Notes: a model not told the origin generated them from the letters alone. Shown: positions 51,002 through 58,352, counted from the stretch's first letter. The stretch is DNA of 64,000 bases from Pseudomonadota bacterium (GCA_021811235.1 JAJZPG010000004.1:62001-126000), one strand, 5' to 3'. Translations and numbers: made by a program.

Positions 51002-51168
51002 CCGCCCACCCCGGCGCGATCGGCCCGCGGGACGGCTGCGAAAGCATTCGGCCATAGGCTGCCGCTTTGCCGGCCCCGCGGGTCGACTGCACGGGAAGCA
51101 CCGATTCTTCCGGTCACGCCCGCGTCATCCCGTCCAGGCAGGATGCGTCTACAATGAACCATCAAATC

Positions 51169-51210
51169 AAAACAAGCGGGGTTTTAATCTTTCAATAAAA
51201 ACAAGCGGAG
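51169..51210 (+). repeat. Direct repeat upstream of the LuxR-type regulator
   Basis: The 11-base word AAAACAAGCGG occurs at 51169-51179 and 51198-51208, spaced 29 bp start to start, close to three helical turns. The pair lies in an AT-rich stretch before the regulator and could be a protein-binding site. Confidence 0.4.
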
Positions 51211-51235
51211 CACTATCCACTCTTAGGAGCCGGAT

Positions 51236-51289
51236 ATGCGCTTGTGCAGTTTTTATCCAGTTGCGATCGCAGGGCACGCGGCATCATGA
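51236..51289 (+). CDS. Possible 17-residue leader peptide before the regulator
   Basis: ATG at 51236 has a near-ideal Shine-Dalgarno (AGGAG, six bases away). It reads MRLCSFYPVAIAGHAAS and its stop overlaps the regulator's ATG (ATGA). The regulator itself has a poor ribosome-binding site, so coupling to this short frame would explain how it is translated. It may equally be that a GTG at 51244 in the regulator frame is the true start. Confidence 0.35.
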   Translation: MRLCSFYPVAIAGHAAS

Positions 51290-52317
51290 CGCGGCATACC
51301 GCCCTGCCCCCCACCGAGGCGATCGGTGCGTTCACCCGACGCGCCCCCGCCTTGGGCTCGCTGCCCGACCTGCTGGGCCTCATCGCCCAGAGCATACAAG
51401 CCGACATGATCCAGCTCGGCATAGACCTGGGCACGGGCTACCGGCGCGATTGTTTTATCGGGCAGACGCTCGATGCCGGCTCGCCTTCCGACCGGGCCGT
51501 CATGCGTGAAATGAGCGCGCAGCCGTCTTCAAGCCTCCCCAGCCTCGCCGCGCCGCCCGACTGGGTCGACCAACGCCCCTTGCCTGTCGGAACGGCGGGA
51601 CGCCGCAGCGCGCCGCGTTCGGATATTGCGTTGATGCGTAGCCCTTCCCGGCCCGCCTTCAAGCCCAGCGAGCGCCGCCAGCTCACCTTGCTGTTGCCGC
51701 ATTTCAATCGCGTCATCGCGCTCGCCTGTGAACTCGAATACGCCCGGCAACGGGAGGCCTGCGCGCTTGCCGTGCTGGAACACGCCGATTACGGCTGCCT
51801 GCTCCTGAGCCAGGAAGGTGCCCCCCTGCACGGCAATCCGCTGGCGTTCGAACTGCTCGAACAGGCGCGCATCCGCGTGGGGCATCGGCTCCAGCTGCCC
51901 ACCCGGCTGCTGCAAGGCCGGTTCGATGCCGCGTTGGCATGCGCCACCGCACCCGACTGCCGCAGCGCGCCCACCTTCCTTGCGCCCGGGCCGCCACCGG
52001 TTGCCATGACCCTGCACCCCCCTACCACCCATGGTCCTTCCGCCCAGCCCCTGGCCGCTCCGCTCACCCTGACCTTGCGCGGCCAGCGCCACGCCGCCCG
52101 CCTTCCCGGCTGCGTGGCGCAACACTTCAGCCTCACACCGGCCGAATTCAGGCTGTGTGAGGCGCTCGTCGACGGCGCCAGCCTCAAGGCCTGCGCCCAG
52201 AACTGGAATCGCTCCTACGACACCTTGCGCAGCCAGCTCAAGGCCATCCTTGCCAAAACCGGCACCCACCGCCAGGCCGAACTCGTCGCCCTGCTCGAGG
52301 CATTCAGAACGCCCTGA
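51286..52317 (+). CDS. LuxR-type (GerE HTH) transcriptional regulator
   Basis: A 343-residue regulator. The C-terminal 60 residues form a LuxR-type helix-turn-helix: FSLTPAEFRLCEALVDGASL, then YDTLRSQLKAILAKTGTHRQ and AELVALL. This variant (LTPAE...LK.I..KTG..RQAEL) is the orphan type not tied to acyl-homoserine lactones. The N-terminal 280 residues are not an autoinducer-binding domain that I recognise; a PAS-like stretch around LEHADYGCLLLSQEGAPL is possible. It lies directly before, and in the same direction as, the four-gene cassette, so it is the likely regulator of that cassette. Confidence 0.85.
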   Translation: MTRHTALPPTEAIGAFTRRAPALGSLPDLLGLIAQSIQADMIQLGIDLGTGYRRDCFIGQTLDAGSPSDRAVMREMSAQPSSSLPSLAAPPDWVDQRPLPVGTAGRRSAPRSDIALMRSPSRPAFKPSERRQLTLLLPHFNRVIALACELEYARQREACALAVLEHADYGCLLLSQEGAPLHGNPLAFELLEQARIRVGHRLQLPTRLLQGRFDAALACATAPDCRSAPTFLAPGPPPVAMTLHPPTTHGPSAQPLAAPLTLTLRGQRHAARLPGCVAQHFSLTPAEFRLCEALVDGASLKACAQNWNRSYDTLRSQLKAILAKTGTHRQAELVALLEAFRTP

Positions 52318-52322
52318 TTTTT

Positions 52323-52336
52323 CCCCCAATTGGGGG
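52323..52336 (+). promoter_or_regulatory. Perfect palindrome CCCCCAATTGGGGG in front of the cassette
   Basis: A 14-bp perfect palindrome six bases after the regulator stop and 87 bp before the first cassette gene. It has no T-run on either strand that would make it a terminator. Its symmetry fits a dimeric regulator operator; a second short palindrome TTGATCAA follows at 52389-52396. Binding by the adjacent LuxR-type protein is a hypothesis. Confidence 0.4.
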
Positions 52337-52422
52337 ATGTGACGGCGCCCCATTTTGGCTGAAATGCAAGGGCGGAGAAGCACCGACCTTGATCAACATC
52401 TGCTGAATGAATGGAGTTTGAT

Positions 52423-53718
52423 ATGGCGACCGAGCATGCTTTGCAAGTCCCCTGCTGTCCCGAGTTTCCCGCCGATCCGACGTGTGACGTGCTGGATTTC
52501 CATTACCGGCTCAAATATCCCACCCAGGTCTCCCACCGCGACCGGCGGGTCATCGTGGAAGTGGTCATCCATGCCCGCCTCGAGCGTTGCCCCGGGCCGC
52601 TCGCGCTAGGCGACCTGGTCTATTCGACCACCCTGTTTCCCGGCGAAAAGGTCCGGTTGTTCACGTCCGACCGCCGCACCCGCTTCACCTTCGACAGCAG
52701 CAGCCAGCTGTCCTACCGCAACCAGCAAACCTCGGAAGAGCGTTTCTACGCGGCGAGCATGCATGATTCCATGACCGACATCTCCATCCGCGACAGCCAG
52801 AGCGCCAGCAGCAGCAGCAAAGGCTCGGCGCGCGGCCATGGCGAGACCAGCGGGGCCATCGAGAGTTTTCTCCTGGGGCCGTCGGTCGACGTCAGCGGAT
52901 CGTGGGACAGCAGCTCGACCAGCAGTTTCTTGCGTGAGCTCTCGACGCACGCCCAATCGTCCGACCGGCGCGCCGAAACGGCCACCCGTACCGCCAATTC
53001 GATTTCGGTGGGCGAGGTCTCGACACGCAGCCACGCCGAAGGCTCGACGGAAGACCATTTCGAATCCTCGTCGCGCGAATTCAGGAACCCCAATCGTTGC
53101 CGCGCCATCACGTTCTACTTTTACCAGATCAACAAGACCCAGAAGATCCGTTTCAAGATCGTCGGCATTTATCGGCGCGTCGTCGACCCGGCCGCCAATT
53201 CTGCGGTGCGTACCAACCCCTTTGCCGACGACGGCGGCGTCGACGTCATTCCCAACGGCATCCTCGCCACCGACCCCAAGCGCTTCGACATCCAGCGCGC
53301 CGCGCAGATATCGAAAATCGAACTGAACAGCAACGCGATCGGCCGTGCAGGCTTCGTCGTCGGGCAGTTCGCCGCATCCGCCGAAGCCGAGCCGATCCCC
53401 GAGGCGCTGCGCGAGAAGGCGCTCAAGAGCGTGGATACCGAATTGATCAAGGAAGGCTATCTGACCGAGAAAGGCCAGCTCAATGAAGAGCGCGTCTTCG
53501 AGCTCGGTTTCGAGCGCATCTCGTCGCTGCCCACGCCGGGCATGTTCGTGCGCTCCTGTCTGGATGAGTGCGACGTGTGCGAACCGGCGCTGGATGAGGC
53601 CATGAAGCTTGAGATCGAACGCCAGCGTCTGGAAAACGCCTTGCTGCAGAAGCAGATCGAGCTGCTGGAAAAACATCAGGACTACCGCTGCTGCCCGGCG
53701 CCCGCGGGCGAGGACTGA
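52423..53718 (+). CDS. Unknown cytosolic protein with Ser-rich middle and coiled-coil end (cassette gene 1)
   Basis: A 431-residue protein without signal peptide or membrane helix. Order of parts: a Cys-containing start (LQVPCCPEFPADPTCDVLDF), a beta-rich region with LVYSTTLFPGEKVRLFTSDR, a long Ser/Thr-rich stretch (about 100-215, e.g. SQSASSSSKGSARG, DSSSTSSFLRELSTHAQSS), a second folded region (NRCRAITFYFYQINKTQKIR and on), and a C-terminal coiled coil (LEIERQRLENALLQKQIELL) ending in RCCPAPAGED, a second CC pair. I recognise no function. ATG 52423 has GGAG seven bases before; an ATG four codons upstream is weaker. It is followed by a stem-loop overlapping its stop. Confidence 0.85.
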   Translation: MATEHALQVPCCPEFPADPTCDVLDFHYRLKYPTQVSHRDRRVIVEVVIHARLERCPGPLALGDLVYSTTLFPGEKVRLFTSDRRTRFTFDSSSQLSYRNQQTSEERFYAASMHDSMTDISIRDSQSASSSSKGSARGHGETSGAIESFLLGPSVDVSGSWDSSSTSSFLRELSTHAQSSDRRAETATRTANSISVGEVSTRSHAEGSTEDHFESSSREFRNPNRCRAITFYFYQINKTQKIRFKIVGIYRRVVDPAANSAVRTNPFADDGGVDVIPNGILATDPKRFDIQRAAQISKIELNSNAIGRAGFVVGQFAASAEAEPIPEALREKALKSVDTELIKEGYLTEKGQLNEERVFELGFERISSLPTPGMFVRSCLDECDVCEPALDEAMKLEIERQRLENALLQKQIELLEKHQDYRCCPAPAGED

Positions 53719-53732
53719 AGCCAGTCCTCGCC
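53707..53732 (+). terminator. Stem-loop overlapping the stop of cassette gene 1
   Basis: A perfect 11-bp inverted repeat (GGCGAGGACTG / CAGTCCTCGCC, four-base loop) that includes the TGA. No T-run follows, so it may be an mRNA processing or stabilising hairpin that sets the ratio of gene 1 to gene 2 product. Confidence 0.5.
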
Positions 53733-53775
53733 TTCCCTTCGCGCAGCGCATCAATCCTTTTCCAGGGTGAACAAC

Positions 53776-55857
53776 ATGACAGACAAGAAATCCATCGGCA
53801 AGGCAGGAACCGAGCTTCTGCAACGCCAGGCCCGCTCGCAATTCCGCGTTCTGCTGGCCGCAAACCCGAACTATTTCGGCAATCTGGCGGACACTCCCTT
53901 CCCGTCCGTCCTGCCCATCCAGAACAACACGTTCTACGAGGAAATCGGCTGCGTGGGGTATCACCCCCAGCAGGAATATCTGGAAGCCGTGGTGTACGTG
54001 AAACAGCCTGCGGGCTACAACGGCTCCGTTTGCCAGGCCGGCAGCCTGGAATACGTGCGCTTCTACCTTTCCTTCGACAACGGCGCCACCTGGGATGACC
54101 AGGGGCTGACCAGCGTGCGCGTATGGGACATCCCCGAAGGAACCGACGGCAACAAGCGGCTCGAATATGCCGTATCGCTCAAGGTCGATCCGCCGAGAAA
54201 ATTCTGCAAGGCCAATCACCTGATCCGGGTACGCGCCATCCTGTCCTGGAACAATCCGCCACCCGCCAACCAACCCAACTGGAAGGCCGTGTGGGGCGAG
54301 GTGCAGGAAGAGACCATCCAGGTCGAGCCGTTCCGGTTCATTTTCCCGCACGACCTGTTCGATATCGCCAAGGTGAAGCTGCCTCTGGAACTTGTCGACC
54401 TGCTGGAGCCCGACGCGCCGATCCCCCTCAAGAAAAAGGCCTTGGGCGCGGCGGAACTCGCCCAGCTATACAAGGACAAGGGCGTGCCGGTGCATCGCTT
54501 TGCGTTCAAGGAACTCATGCAGTTCACCGCACAACCCTGGTCCCTGAATCCCGCCGCCCCCGTCCTGGACGCCGGGATCAAGCTGGACGTCGATCTGGTC
54601 GACGTGCTGTTCCCCAAGGACGGCGATACCAGTTACGAGGAGCTCACCTGCATCGGGCTGGACCCCAATTTTCCCGACACTCTGGTGGGCATCATCACGG
54701 TCAAGAAATCCTCCGGCTATTCCGGCACGCCGTGTACCGATGGCAGCCGTGAATTCGTCACCTGGTGGGCCGATTTCGACGGCAACGGCAGCTTCGAAAC
54801 CTGCCTGGGCACGTCCGAGGTACGGGTGTACGACTTGCCGAACGTGCCGCAGAAGGGCGTGCATTACGCCGTGCGGCTGCCCGTCGACCTGAACCCGTAT
54901 CGCGACCCCTGCCGCAAAGGCCCGCGCCTGGTGCGTATCCGCGCCATCCTGTCCTGGAACGTGCCGGTGCCCTGCGCCAATCCCGGCCAGGTGCCCACCT
55001 GGGGCAACCGCGAGGAAACCGTCGTGCATATCGCGCCACAGGGCGTGGTCGGCGGGGTGGCCGGCAAGATCGCCATTCTCGGCGGCATCCCGACCCAGCA
55101 CATCCACGACGTGTCGGGCCTGACCACGGCGAGCGCCGTGTTTGCGCTCAACAACAATCCGCCCGATGGCGCCGGCCGGCCCTGCCCGTTCGGCGGTGCC
55201 GTCACCGCGCAGGGGGCGCCCGTGGCGGGCCACAGCTACATCGTCGAGGTCAGTCCGGACGGCAACGTGTGGACGCCGGTCCTGACCGACCTGATCGTCA
55301 CCGACCAAAACGGCAACACCAGCCCGCACAAGGCCAACCCCCTCACCAAGCGCTTCGATTACCTGCCTTTCAGCGCCAATGTGAACGGCCTCCTGGCGCA
55401 CTGGAACAGCGCGGGCGACGCCTTGTGGCAGGTGCGTCTCACGGTGTACGACGCGGCCAACAACCCGGTGGGGGCGCCCGACGTGCATCGTGTCCAGCTC
55501 GACAACACGGGGCCCGACGTGTCCATCGACATCGTCAGCGGCGCCGGGAACTGCGGCAAGTTCGGCATCGGCACGGTGCTGACCGGCAACGTCGTCGCCC
55601 GCGACGATTACCTGGGAGGCTACAGCCTGGCCGTCGAACCCGCGGTCAACGATCCCGGCGAAGGCATTCCGGTGCCTGGGGGCGGCAACGTCAACACCCC
55701 GCCCGCCCCCGGCACGGGCTGGACCCTGGACACGGCCGGCATGAAAGCCTGCGGCTACGTGATCCGCGTCGTCGCCACCGACCGCGCCATCGTCGACAGC
55801 CAAAGCGTGGGCCATCATCGGACCGACAGTGCGGGCTTCTGCCTGGAAGAGCAGTAG
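53776..55857 (+). CDS. Unknown large protein with an internally duplicated domain (cassette gene 2)
   Basis: A 693-residue protein with no signal peptide. Two homologous segments of about 130 residues are visible, one near residues 55-185 and one near 290-420: YEEIGCVG / YEELTCIG, GYNGSVCQAGSLEYV / GYSGTPCTDGSREFV, VRVWDIPE / VRVYDLPN, and LIRVRAILSWNNPPP / LVRIRAILSWNVPVP. Each copy has Cys at equivalent places. The C-terminal third has beta-sandwich features (TKRFDYLPFSANVNGLLAHW, VQLDNTGPDVSIDIVSG). Binding or scaffold function is suggested by the repeats, but no known family is recognised. The ATG at 53776 has AGGG before it; a GTG three codons upstream is possible. Confidence 0.85.
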   Translation: MTDKKSIGKAGTELLQRQARSQFRVLLAANPNYFGNLADTPFPSVLPIQNNTFYEEIGCVGYHPQQEYLEAVVYVKQPAGYNGSVCQAGSLEYVRFYLSFDNGATWDDQGLTSVRVWDIPEGTDGNKRLEYAVSLKVDPPRKFCKANHLIRVRAILSWNNPPPANQPNWKAVWGEVQEETIQVEPFRFIFPHDLFDIAKVKLPLELVDLLEPDAPIPLKKKALGAAELAQLYKDKGVPVHRFAFKELMQFTAQPWSLNPAAPVLDAGIKLDVDLVDVLFPKDGDTSYEELTCIGLDPNFPDTLVGIITVKKSSGYSGTPCTDGSREFVTWWADFDGNGSFETCLGTSEVRVYDLPNVPQKGVHYAVRLPVDLNPYRDPCRKGPRLVRIRAILSWNVPVPCANPGQVPTWGNREETVVHIAPQGVVGGVAGKIAILGGIPTQHIHDVSGLTTASAVFALNNNPPDGAGRPCPFGGAVTAQGAPVAGHSYIVEVSPDGNVWTPVLTDLIVTDQNGNTSPHKANPLTKRFDYLPFSANVNGLLAHWNSAGDALWQVRLTVYDAANNPVGAPDVHRVQLDNTGPDVSIDIVSGAGNCGKFGIGTVLTGNVVARDDYLGGYSLAVEPAVNDPGEGIPVPGGGNVNTPPAPGTGWTLDTAGMKACGYVIRVVATDRAIVDSQSVGHHRTDSAGFCLEEQ

Positions 55858-55867
55858 GTTCAAACAC

Positions 55868-55891
55868 GGCGGCCGACGCCAGCCGGCCGCC
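55868..55891 (+). terminator. Stem-loop between cassette genes 2 and 3
   Basis: A 7-bp inverted repeat GGCGGCC / GGCCGCC with a ten-base loop, 10 bp after the gene 2 stop. There is no T-run. Together with 53707-53732 it means two successive gene junctions in the cassette carry hairpins. Confidence 0.35.
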
Positions 55892-55931
55892 GCCCTTGTC
55901 CGGCAACACGAAAGAAACCTGGGAGCACGCC

Positions 55932-56813
55932 ATGGCACACGAATATCCCTTCAAACAGACGTCTGCGACGCCGGGTCGGCGCCTGCTTCAGGCGGGCTGC
56001 TCAGCGCTGTTCCTGGCGTGGGCCCTGCTTTGCACCTTGCCTGCCCGCGCCATCGGCCCGGAAACGCCGGTGGACTTTCTCGACGTCTATGTCCCCAAAG
56101 GGTTCATGCTGTTGCTGATCGAGCCTGGGCAAGTCGTCGACTTGCAGGTGATGCGCATCGTCCATCAGGACGGAAAGCCGCTGCAGCGCGAAAAAGTCGA
56201 ATGGAAGACGCTGCGGATGCTCGATTACACCGCGCCCCTTGCCCGCCCGGGCGATTTCCAATATCGCGAGCCAAATGAGCAGCGCAAGGCTGAAAGCCCT
56301 CGCCTTCAAGCCGTTCCCGACTCGTTGCCGTCCATCGACACGGCGCGCCCCCTGCCCGACCTGCAGCTCGCCGACAGCGATGCGCCCGTGGTGGTCAGCG
56401 ACGCGCCGCCACGCAGGGTGGGCGTTCTGATTCCGCTGGCCTCGCCGGCCCAGCGCAGGCTCAAGGACGGCGCGTATGCGGAAAAATTCATCGCCCGTGC
56501 CCGTCTGACAGGCGAGTCCGCGAAGAGGAAGCCCCTGACCATGACGCGCTGGTCGCACTTCGTCATGCGCGACCAGCAAGCGCACTTCATCAGCCAGGCG
56601 GAGTATTCGCGCATGGTCGACCCGCCTTCCGACGGTGTGGACGGCTCCGGCGAAAAAATCCAGCTCAACCTCGGCCGCAGCGTGAAGGCGGCCGTGCCGA
56701 TCGAGAGGACCCGGAAAACGCGCGCCGTGCCGCTCGGCCGGCTGGGCGGCGTCGCACCGGAACGCGACCGTTCGAAGCAAGACGAAGCGCGTAACGAAAC
56801 CAGCGAACGATAA
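55932..56813 (+). CDS. Exported protein of unknown function (cassette gene 3)
   Basis: A 293-residue protein with a signal peptide (RLLQAGCSALFLAWALLCTLPARA, cleavage likely after ARA). The mature part begins with a short ordered region (VDFLDVYVPKGFMLLLIEPG, VVDLQVMRIVHQDGKPLQRE), then long basic, Pro- and Arg-rich stretches. No enzyme motif and no lipobox. It is followed 11 bp later by the metallopeptidase gene. Its disordered, basic nature would fit an envelope adaptor or pro-region partner; that is a guess. Confidence 0.82.
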   Translation: MAHEYPFKQTSATPGRRLLQAGCSALFLAWALLCTLPARAIGPETPVDFLDVYVPKGFMLLLIEPGQVVDLQVMRIVHQDGKPLQREKVEWKTLRMLDYTAPLARPGDFQYREPNEQRKAESPRLQAVPDSLPSIDTARPLPDLQLADSDAPVVVSDAPPRRVGVLIPLASPAQRRLKDGAYAEKFIARARLTGESAKRKPLTMTRWSHFVMRDQQAHFISQAEYSRMVDPPSDGVDGSGEKIQLNLGRSVKAAVPIERTRKTRAVPLGRLGGVAPERDRSKQDEARNETSER

Positions 56814-56824
56814 GGGACACGATC

Positions 56825-58105
56825 ATGAAGACTATTGTCATTGCAGCGTGGGTCGGATTCATCGAGTTGTGCGCGGCGGTCGACGTGCTCGCTGCGCAAC
56901 GCACCGTCTGCTTTCGCATGCAGCTCCGCGATGACCGCTTCAATTGCGCCGAATCGTCCGAGACCGGGGCGCGCCGTCCCTGCAATCCGGGAGGCTATGT
57001 CGACATGGTCGGCCATCAGGTCGAGCTATGGGACAAGGACTGGTCGGGCGACGACGAATACATCGGCACCTGGTACATCGGCGGAGGCGGCACCCAGTGC
57101 ATCGGTTTCGAGTGGGAAAACGCGAGCTACGCGAAGGGCGAAACCCACCCGGATCTCTATCTGCGCTACATCAATCGCGTGAACCGCACCGGCTATTCCA
57201 ACTACATCTACGTGCGGGGCGTGAACACGGACAACAGCGCCGCCTCCGCCACCACCTGGCGCAATGGCCAGTCAGGCGACCCCGAGCGCTACGTCGCGAT
57301 GAACTGCAAGAAAGGGAATGCCTGCTCGATCCTGTCTTCCGGCACACTGGTGCCGACCAATGACGTCGCCTCCGACCGCGGCCTCAGGATCATGGCGCTC
57401 GACTCCGCCCAGCATGCGCTGCAGGCGGTGGGGGAAGTGATGGACACCCACGTCGATCTGCAGTATCCCGGCCAGTCCGACTGCCCGACCAGCTGCGCGC
57501 CGAGCCGAAACCTGATCAAGATCACCCAGGCGCGTGGCGGCAACGGCTCCAACGTCACCCATGAAATCGGCCACGTCGTGCAGATGCAGGAATTCGACCA
57601 GGACTGGCTGCGCGACGACTGCAGCCGGGGCGGCAACGGCCACAGCCTGACCTCGCTGGAACACGAGTCCTGCGCGACCACGGAGGGGTGGGGGAACTAC
57701 ATCGCCTCGGTCAGCTGGTACGAGCCCAACCATGCCGGCAGCGTCCCGATATCCTGGGGACGCGACTTCGAGACCGCAACCCTGCAGTTCGCCACCTGCT
57801 CGGACGATGCCCACAACGAAATCCAGACCGGCAAAGCGTGGTGGGACCTGGACGACTGGAACGACGAGGGCGGCGCGGGCGCGGCCAACGGCGACGACGA
57901 CCGCCTGGCCTACGCCACCACCGACATCGTCACCGGCTGGCGCCAGTTCGACGACGGCAGCGGCAACCGGGAAGACGGCGAGAGCGGCCAGGACGGGGTC
58001 AACATGCGCGACTACTGGGGCAACAATTCGGGCCGCTTCACCGCCAGCGGCGCCTTCGAGACGCTGGTCGAGCACAATTGCCTGCAGGCCCAGGTCAACG
58101 ATTGA
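56825..58105 (+). CDS. Predicted secreted zinc metallopeptidase (cassette gene 4)
   Basis: A 426-residue exported protein (signal peptide about 1-24, ending VDVLAAQ). It contains VTHEIGHVVQMQEF, a HExxH zinc site with the His at residues 246 and 250 and catalytic Glu 247, and 37 residues later TEGWGNYIASVSW, where Glu 287 is well placed as third (gluzincin-type) ligand. About 14 Cys suggest disulfide bonds; the region before the active site (CFRMQLRDDRFNC, QVELWDKDWSGDDEYIG) is beta-rich. It does not match a peptidase family I can name. It is last in the cassette; the phosphoribulokinase gene after it has its own promoter. Confidence 0.8.
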   Translation: MKTIVIAAWVGFIELCAAVDVLAAQRTVCFRMQLRDDRFNCAESSETGARRPCNPGGYVDMVGHQVELWDKDWSGDDEYIGTWYIGGGGTQCIGFEWENASYAKGETHPDLYLRYINRVNRTGYSNYIYVRGVNTDNSAASATTWRNGQSGDPERYVAMNCKKGNACSILSSGTLVPTNDVASDRGLRIMALDSAQHALQAVGEVMDTHVDLQYPGQSDCPTSCAPSRNLIKITQARGGNGSNVTHEIGHVVQMQEFDQDWLRDDCSRGGNGHSLTSLEHESCATTEGWGNYIASVSWYEPNHAGSVPISWGRDFETATLQFATCSDDAHNEIQTGKAWWDLDDWNDEGGAGAANGDDDRLAYATTDIVTGWRQFDDGSGNREDGESGQDGVNMRDYWGNNSGRFTASGAFETLVEHNCLQAQVND

Positions 58106-58276
58106 GCCCGGCCGGAGAGGCGTCACACGGCCCGCGAGACGGATCCGAACGACGCCTTGGCAAGCCGGGGCCGTCGACGCGTTCCCGACATCAGCGACCG
58201 GCTGCAAGCCTGCCGCCGTCCCATCATCCTGCGCGACGCAGCGCGCAGCCTTGCCCGGGCCATGCCTGGGGCCGGG

Positions 58277-58306
58277 GTGACAAGCTCTGGTCCATGCGAG
58301 TAAAAT
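58277..58306 (+). promoter_or_regulatory. Sigma-70-like promoter for phosphoribulokinase
   Basis: GTGACA (58277-58282, 5 of 6 to consensus) and TAAAAT (58301-58306, 5 of 6) are separated by 18 bp, 47 bp before the prk ATG. A small AGCG-TTTT-CGCT hairpin follows at 58309-58320 in the predicted leader. No CbbR-type site was recognised. Confidence 0.6.
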
Positions 58307-58352
58307 GTAGCGTTTTCGCTAAATTTTTACGCATCCTCCAGGGAGTCCCAGC

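What the first reader, a model, noticed from the sequence alone, without database searches (positions are those of the whole stretch)
51286..58105. Regulator-plus-four-gene cassette of unknown function ending in a secreted metallopeptidase
An orphan LuxR-type regulator is followed on the same strand by a 431-aa protein and a 693-aa protein without signal peptides, then an exported 293-aa protein and an exported 426-aa HExxH protein. None of the four resembles a family I can name, yet they are full-length, in good codon frames, tightly spaced, and bounded by the divergent leuS on one side and the prk promoter on the other. Two cytosolic proteins plus two exported ones under one regulator look like a surface or secretion system with its own processing enzyme.
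Basis: partly seen in the sequence, partly recalled or inferred. Interest (0 to 1): 0.75.

Follow-up and report, generated by a model that had tools for sequence, protein, structure and literature searches.

The report
LuxR-switched two-protein island, optional peptidase
A 7-kb block of genes inserted between two housekeeping genes in some Thiobacillus carries a LuxR-type switch, a DNA site it very probably uses, and two large undescribed proteins that travel together in other bacteria; the secreted metallopeptidase at the end is an optional add-on, and what the two proteins do is still unknown.

Summary
The genes are real: LuxR-type regulator 51286-52317, B431 52423-53718, C693 53776-55857, exported D293 55932-56813, exported HExxH protein E426 56825-58105. 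No Pfam, NCBIfam or PDB relative was found for B, D or E. They are not one four-gene system. Other Thiobacillus carry regulator-B-C (or B with another ~700-aa partner) at the same leuS-prk site without D and E, and most lack the whole block. B pairs with a ~700-aa beta-sandwich partner in 17 mostly betaproteobacterial loci; relatives of B in Chloroflexota, Ignavibacteria and KSB1 stand without it. The main new result is a conserved promoter: CCCCAATTGRGGGATG lies before B in all four Thiobacillus cassettes, always exactly 30 nt (centre to hexamer) upstream of TGAAAT, the class II activator position (-41.5). The same promoter precedes a giant B-related gene elsewhere in one of these genomes, and the cargo gene beside a LuxR paralogue in another. 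Best reading: a mobile LuxR-activated module making a cytosolic beta-rich B+C assembly, with D/E as accessory. A membrane-active or conflict role for B is the leading functional guess, but weak. The secretion-system reading is not supported.

The parts
51030..58275 (.). Inserted block (approximate limits 51011-51030 and 58275-58292) between leuS and prk
   Evidence: blastn homology to the leuS-prk gap of other Thiobacillus stops and resumes here; in 27 of 28 other genomes with both genes in view, leuS and prk are about 250-1750 bp apart without B/C/D/E
51236..51289 (+). Leader mini-ORF MRLCSFYPVAIAGHAAS*, stop overlaps the LuxR start (ATGA)
   Evidence: Equivalent 16-18-codon ORFs with the same overlap in L003, L004, L005
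51286..52317 (+). Divergent LuxR-type regulator, 343 aa, C-terminal HTH
   Evidence: Weak NCBIfam LuxR hits on residues 277-336; 52-63% identical orthologue in three sister cassettes, paralogue in G064
52324..52339 (+). Operator palindrome CCCCAATTGGGGGATG
   Evidence: Exact 16-mer in four LuxR-B gaps plus L034 and L058, nowhere else in 1.02 Mb of loci; 14-mer core found at this place only in 1.46 Mb of own genome
52360..52365 (+). Predicted -10 hexamer TGAAAT, 30 nt from palindrome centre
   Evidence: Same spacing in all six promoters, TGAAAT x4, TCAAAT, TCTAAT, with unconserved spacer
52423..53718 (+). B431: cytosolic, long-strand beta protein with central helix-Ser/Gly loop-helix and C-terminal coiled coil; conserved Cys
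   Evidence: 21-row alignment with invariant Cys 11, 12, 21, 56, 379, 383, 423, 424; AF2 models
53776..55857 (+). C693: two GEVED-like repeats (22-192 and 243-428 of the profile) plus a C-terminal beta-sandwich module shared with other B partners
   Evidence: hhalign self-match P 99.5; C against c3 type E 2.3e-4, P 45; Pfam GEVED E 8e-5, just under cut-off
55932..56813 (+). D293: exported protein of no known family
   Evidence: Signal-like N-terminus; 68% identical homologue only in L020
56825..58105 (+). E426: exported, 13 Cys, zincin-type metallopeptidase candidate (HEIGH at 57560-57574, then ATTEGW)
   Evidence: Sequence; no profile or PDB hit; start of a homologue in L020, no other in the genomes searched
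58277..58306 (+). prk promoter-like site at the edge of the block
   Evidence: 10 of 12 sigma-70 match, in the part conserved in empty sites

Best explanation
A LuxR-type activator encoded at the head of a 7-kb accessory island binds the palindrome CCCCCAATTGGGGG centred at about -41.5 and switches on the B-C(-D-E) transcript (regulatory step strongly inferred, not shown). B431 and C693 are made in the cytosol and probably act as a pair: B is a beta/coiled-coil protein likely to oligomerise, and C a modular beta-sandwich partner whose N-terminal half is exchanged between lineages while a C-terminal module is kept (pairing shown by gene neighbourhood; assembly inferred). D and E are a separate exported pair added to the 3' end in this lineage, E probably a zinc endopeptidase acting outside the cytosol (inferred from motif and signal peptide). 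My leading functional guess is that B is membrane-active in a conflict or cell-lysis role (about 0.25); a structural or adhesive particle component is about equally likely. The confidence below is for the module, its regulation and the core/accessory split, not for the functional guess.
For: Synteny: cassette at the same leuS-prk site in G724, G725, G726 and own genome; no B/C/D/E in 28 other genomes where leuS and prk are both in view. Promoter: six identical architectures, including a B-related giant gene in the same genome as the L003 cassette. LuxR follows the Thiobacillus cassettes, not B in general. B plus ~700-aa partner in 17 loci; partner types linked by hhalign P 94-98 (c3-c3b, c3-p7, c3-c5, c5-p7). 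B family in Chloroflexota, Ignavibacteria, KSB1 and a giant-virus protein by fold (E 3e-16). E absent from the genomes of sister cassettes and nothing of D or E between C and prk there. Membrane or conflict hint: helix-Gly/Ser/Ala loop-helix (54% G+S+A against 26% overall), Gly-rich hydrophobic version in giants, conflict-type neighbours (TIR-EAD7, NB-ARC-BTAD, TIR/SEFIR, Fic) in L115, L117, L118, L007, L024.
Against: No binding, transcript or expression data. The AF2 models are modest (pLDDT 58 and 68) and no solved structure matches. Beta-pore hits have E 0.17 or worse and TM about 0.1, so they carry almost no weight. Many B loci sit among housekeeping genes. Some lack any partner (L008, L011, L014, Chloroflexota). 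hhalign between C and the other partner types is only P 45.
Confidence: 0.68

Rival explanations
1. Surface or secretion system with its own processing enzyme: B and C are handled by an export route and E matures them.
For: D and E look exported and are co-directional with B and C; C has adhesin-like beta-sandwich repeats (GEVED just below cut-off).
Against: B and C lack signal peptides. D and E are not in the G724, G725 and G726 cassettes. No secretion component is in the block or recognisable around B in other genomes.
Confidence: 0.1
2. Membrane-active effector (pore-former-like) with a beta-sandwich partner, used in conflict or programmed lysis. This is a functional sub-hypothesis of the best explanation.
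For: Long strands plus helix-Gly/Ser loop-helix core; most top but non-significant folds are beta-pore formers; conflict-type neighbours in several lineages.
Against: No significant fold match; PADLOC finds nothing for B or C; many B genes are in housekeeping context; in Thiobacillus the block is switched by a LuxR-type activator, not obviously infection-triggered; no enrichment test of neighbours was done.
Confidence: 0.25
3. Structural or adhesive particle: B and C assemble into a filament or coat released by lysis or tethered to the membrane (DUF1360 partner in some loci).
For: C-terminal coiled coil, conserved Cys, modular beta-sandwich partners, DUF1360 small protein beside B and partner in L006, L007, L021, L022.
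Against: No export signal, no known assembly machinery; DUF1360 is missing from the Thiobacillus cassettes.
Confidence: 0.25
4. Chance neighbourhood of unrelated genes at an insertion hot spot.
For: The leuS-prk gap takes different cargo: LuxR paralogue plus a PAP2-like gene in G064, HbpS-like gene in most genomes.
Against: B and partner stay together in 17 loci, most at unrelated sites; LuxR-operator-B order is constant in four cassettes. The reading may still apply to D/E relative to B/C.
Confidence: 0.1

Closest known systems
LuxR/NarL-type class II transcription activators
   Same: C-terminal HTH-like end, palindromic operator centred at about -41.5 from a -10 box
   Different: Sequence too divergent for Pfam GerE; N-terminal ~250 aa match no sensor family; no paper in the library holds both this palindrome core and LuxR
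Gluzincin metallopeptidases (thermolysin M4, fungalysin M36)
   Same: HExxH followed by an EGW motif, exported (comparison from memory)
   Different: No profile or PDB match; the third ligand (E279 or E287) is 33 or 41 residues after the first His and not settled
GEVED domain (PF20009)
   Same: Sub-threshold match to the second repeat of C693
   Different: Below Pfam cut-off; C has no signal peptide
Beta-pore-forming proteins (aerolysin, pleurotolysin, Cry78Aa) and bacterial gasdermins
   Same: Long strands, Ser/Gly-rich segment, idea of a protease partner
   Different: No significant fold or sequence match; no protease with most B genes
Yasminevirus protein A0A5K0U6Q4 (uncharacterised)
   Same: Predicted fold, 24% identity over 325 columns
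   Different: 642 aa, giant virus, function unknown

Membership tests
LuxR-type transcription factors | C-terminal GerE/LuxR HTH | tested here: inconclusive
   Pfam none at E<=10 or at 0.01 in two orthologues; NCBIfam LuxR models E 0.002-0.06 on the C-terminal part
LuxR-type transcription factors | Activates from a palindromic site near -41.5 | tested here: inconclusive
   Site architecture present: six promoters with identical palindrome to -10 spacing; binding and activation could not be tested
Gluzincin metallopeptidase (M4/M36) | HExxH plus downstream Glu ligand | tested here: inconclusive
   HEIGH at 246-250 and E279/E287 in sequence; no homologous structure to confirm the ligand
Gluzincin metallopeptidase (M4/M36) | Profile match to the family | tested here: not met
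   No Pfam, NCBIfam or PDB hit at E<=10
Beta-pore-forming proteins | Significant fold match | tested here: not met
   Foldseek PDB best E 0.17, TM 0.12
Beta-pore-forming proteins | Membrane insertion by oligomeric hairpins | not testable with these tools
   needs liposome or EM work
Bacterial gasdermin or known anti-phage defence systems | Match to PADLOC models | tested here: not met
   Only a weak HTH hit in LuxR, E 0.001
Secretion/surface system | Export machinery, or signal peptides on the main products | tested here: not met
   B and C without signal; no machinery recognised in neighbourhoods
GEVED-domain proteins | Score above gathering cut-off | tested here: not met
   23.8 bits against cut-off 24.4

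The most novel reading that the evidence does not exclude
B431 founds a widespread, undescribed protein superfamily (compact B proteins plus 1300-1700-aa giants, and a giant-virus relative) that, with exchangeable beta-sandwich partners and dedicated regulators, forms a new inducible membrane-active or conflict module in bacteria.
Probability: 0.25. Interest if true: 0.85.

Novelty: new variant of a known kind. Interest (0 to 1): 0.55.

Why it matters
It describes a conserved pair of protein families with no database entry, B itself being present in several phyla. It gives a precise testable handle (regulator, operator, -10 box) for finding when they are made. It also shows that the striking metallopeptidase is an optional addition, which redirects work to B and its partner. 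If B proves membrane-active, a new effector superfamily with a relative in giant viruses would follow.

Tried and rejected
Plasmid and phage collections: no match for E in either, none for B in plasmids. Viral contigs: no confirmed match for E or B. E searched in 60 relatives, 369 genomes of the class, 149 of the phylum of G741 and the 23 B-bearing genomes: only own genome and the L020 contig (one E 0.03 partial hit in G725 ignored). B profile in 299 genomes of the phylum: own genome only. PDB by sequence: nothing for E, two meaningless hits for single-sequence B, nothing with the B profile. PADLOC and PHROGs: nothing useful. Paper searches on DUF1360, GEVED, the operator and Thiobacillus leuS/prk gave no description of this block. 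The promoter scan found one sigma-70-like site, that before prk, no more than shuffles give. The AAAACAAGCGG repeat upstream of LuxR is not conserved in sisters. Beta-pore Foldseek hits rejected as evidence (TM about 0.1). Pairing of B with DUF1360 was considered general but holds in only four loci.

Full report
What is there. The five ORFs are real and lie as described. Codon-position GC and dN/dS below 0.3 against homologues for LuxR, B, C and D show protein-coding genes under purifying selection. B431 and C693 have no export signal; D293 and E426 do, judged by eye. None of B, D, E has a Pfam, NCBIfam, PADLOC or useful PHROG match; C has a GEVED hit just below cut-off; the regulator is a divergent LuxR type.

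Where it sits. The genome is a Thiobacillus, judged from the titles of its closest B and LuxR relatives. The block lies between leuS and prk. In 28 other genomes of the genus in which both genes are in view, none has B, C, D or E in the gap. In 27 of them leuS and prk are about 250-1750 bp apart, usually with a small HbpS-like gene (Pfam E 1.5e-24 for one) and sometimes one more ORF. The 28th, G064, carries in the same gap a LuxR paralogue (36-39%) and a 647-aa gene with a weak PAP2 hit. Homology with empty sites ends at about 51011-51030 and resumes at about 58275-58292. So this is an accessory island at a site that takes different cargo.

Sister cassettes show what belongs together. G724 (L003/L037 plus L050) has leuS-LuxR-B-C-prk, with C split over two contigs. 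G726 (L005/L036 plus L051) has leuS-LuxR-B-C-HbpS-prk, also over two contigs. G725 (L004) has leuS-(one further ORF)-LuxR-B-(707-aa partner of another type)-HbpS-like-prk. The L020 contig, labelled Planctomycetota but 82-84% identical to this block and therefore probably misbinned, has B-C-D and the first 44 residues of E. E is not found anywhere in the genomes of G724 and G726. LuxR-B-partner is the core and D-E a second module. The contig joins in G724 and G726 are inferred from the two halves of C, not seen directly.

Wider distribution. A pattern scan of 84,980 genomes found 23 loci encoding B relatives. Profile searches matched seven of 298 genomes from the class of the Anaerolineae locus and six of 299 from the family of Dechloromonas G731, some of them the same loci and some weak or fragmentary. 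Adjacent, or within a few genes, a ~700-790-aa partner is present in 17 loci: own, L003, L004, L005, L006, L007, L009, L010, L012, L016, L017, L018, L019, L020, L021, L022, L118. It is missing in L008, L011, L014, in six Chloroflexota loci (L015, L112-L116), in KSB1 L023 and in Ignavibacteria L024; L013 ends at the contig edge. Partner types c3, c3b, c5 and p7 are linked by profile comparison (c3-c3b P 98, c3-p7 P 97, c3-c5 and c5-p7 P 94); C693 shares only a C-terminal region with c3 (E 2.3e-4, P 45) and has a tandem duplication in its N-terminal half. In L006, L007, L021 and L022 a DUF1360 protein accompanies the pair (the L021 hit is just under the cut-off and L022 is assigned by similarity). 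Regulators differ: LuxR in Thiobacillus, BTAD types in L013, L035, L115, L117.

Regulation. The LuxR-B gap in all four Thiobacillus cassettes holds CCCCAATTG(A/G)GGGATG, with exactly 30 nt from the palindrome centre to TGAAAT; the 20-nt spacer is not conserved (6-11 of 20 identical between pairs). The same 16-mer and spacing precede the 1659-aa B-related giant in L034 (TCAAAT), in the same genome as the L003 cassette, and the cargo gene of G064 (TCTAAT). No other exact copy occurs in 1.02 Mb of loci or, for the 14-mer core, in 1.46 Mb (51%) of the own genome. A centre at -41.5 is the textbook class II activator position (own knowledge). That the adjacent LuxR protein binds it is inferred from constant linkage. 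A conserved leader mini-ORF overlaps the LuxR start in all four.

What B is. Two AF2 models (pLDDT 58 and 68) agree on long strands, a helix, a loop region rich in Ser/Gly/Ala (54% against 26% overall), a second helix, more long strands and a C-terminal coiled coil. No PDB fold matches; one uncharacterised Yasminevirus protein does (E 3e-16). Giants of about 1350-1660 aa in other Thiobacillus share the core motifs and have a Gly-rich segment in place of the loop; hhalign of one giant core with the B profile aligns 37 residues at P 94. The giant in L034 carries a C-terminal HEIVH motif. Conflict-type domains near B or B-like genes (TIR-EAD7, NB-ARC-BTAD, TIR/SEFIR, Fic) occur in L115, L117, L118, L007, L024, but no enrichment test was done.

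Judgement. Shown: gene set, island position, core versus accessory genes, B-partner linkage, promoter architecture. Inferred: LuxR binding, B-C complex, E catalysis. Guess: membrane-active or conflict role.

Noticed in passing
window 51236-51289; L003 8754; L004 8804; L005 5799: Conserved 16-18-codon leader ORF overlapping the LuxR start codon, possibly translational coupling.
   Followed up: partly
L034 4996-9975 (-): Giant B-related protein (1659 aa) with its own C-terminal HEIVH motif, under the same promoter element as the cassette.
   Followed up: partly
L058 1003-4003 (-): LuxR paralogue plus 647-aa PAP2/haloperoxidase-like cargo with the same palindrome, in the same leuS-prk gap.
   Followed up: partly
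L020 (JAKEGR010000262.1): Contig binned as Planctomycetota is 82-84% identical to the Thiobacillus B and C proteins; probably a binning error.
   Followed up: partly
L014 3-1143 (-), L008 856-2678 (-): Next to B: a protein with weak MvdD pre-ATP-grasp similarity and a short leader-like peptide with ISGG, resembling a RiPP cluster.
   Followed up: partly
L019 5105-9217 (+): 1370-aa protein without an evident signal peptide joining a subtilase and a vWA domain, directly after B.
   Followed up: partly
leuS-prk gap of most Thiobacillus genomes: An HbpS-like exported gene sits between leuS and prk in most genomes but is missing from this window.
   Followed up: partly
window 58308-58321: TAGCGTTTTCGCTA palindrome between the prk -10-like box and the prk start, possible regulator site.
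   Followed up: no
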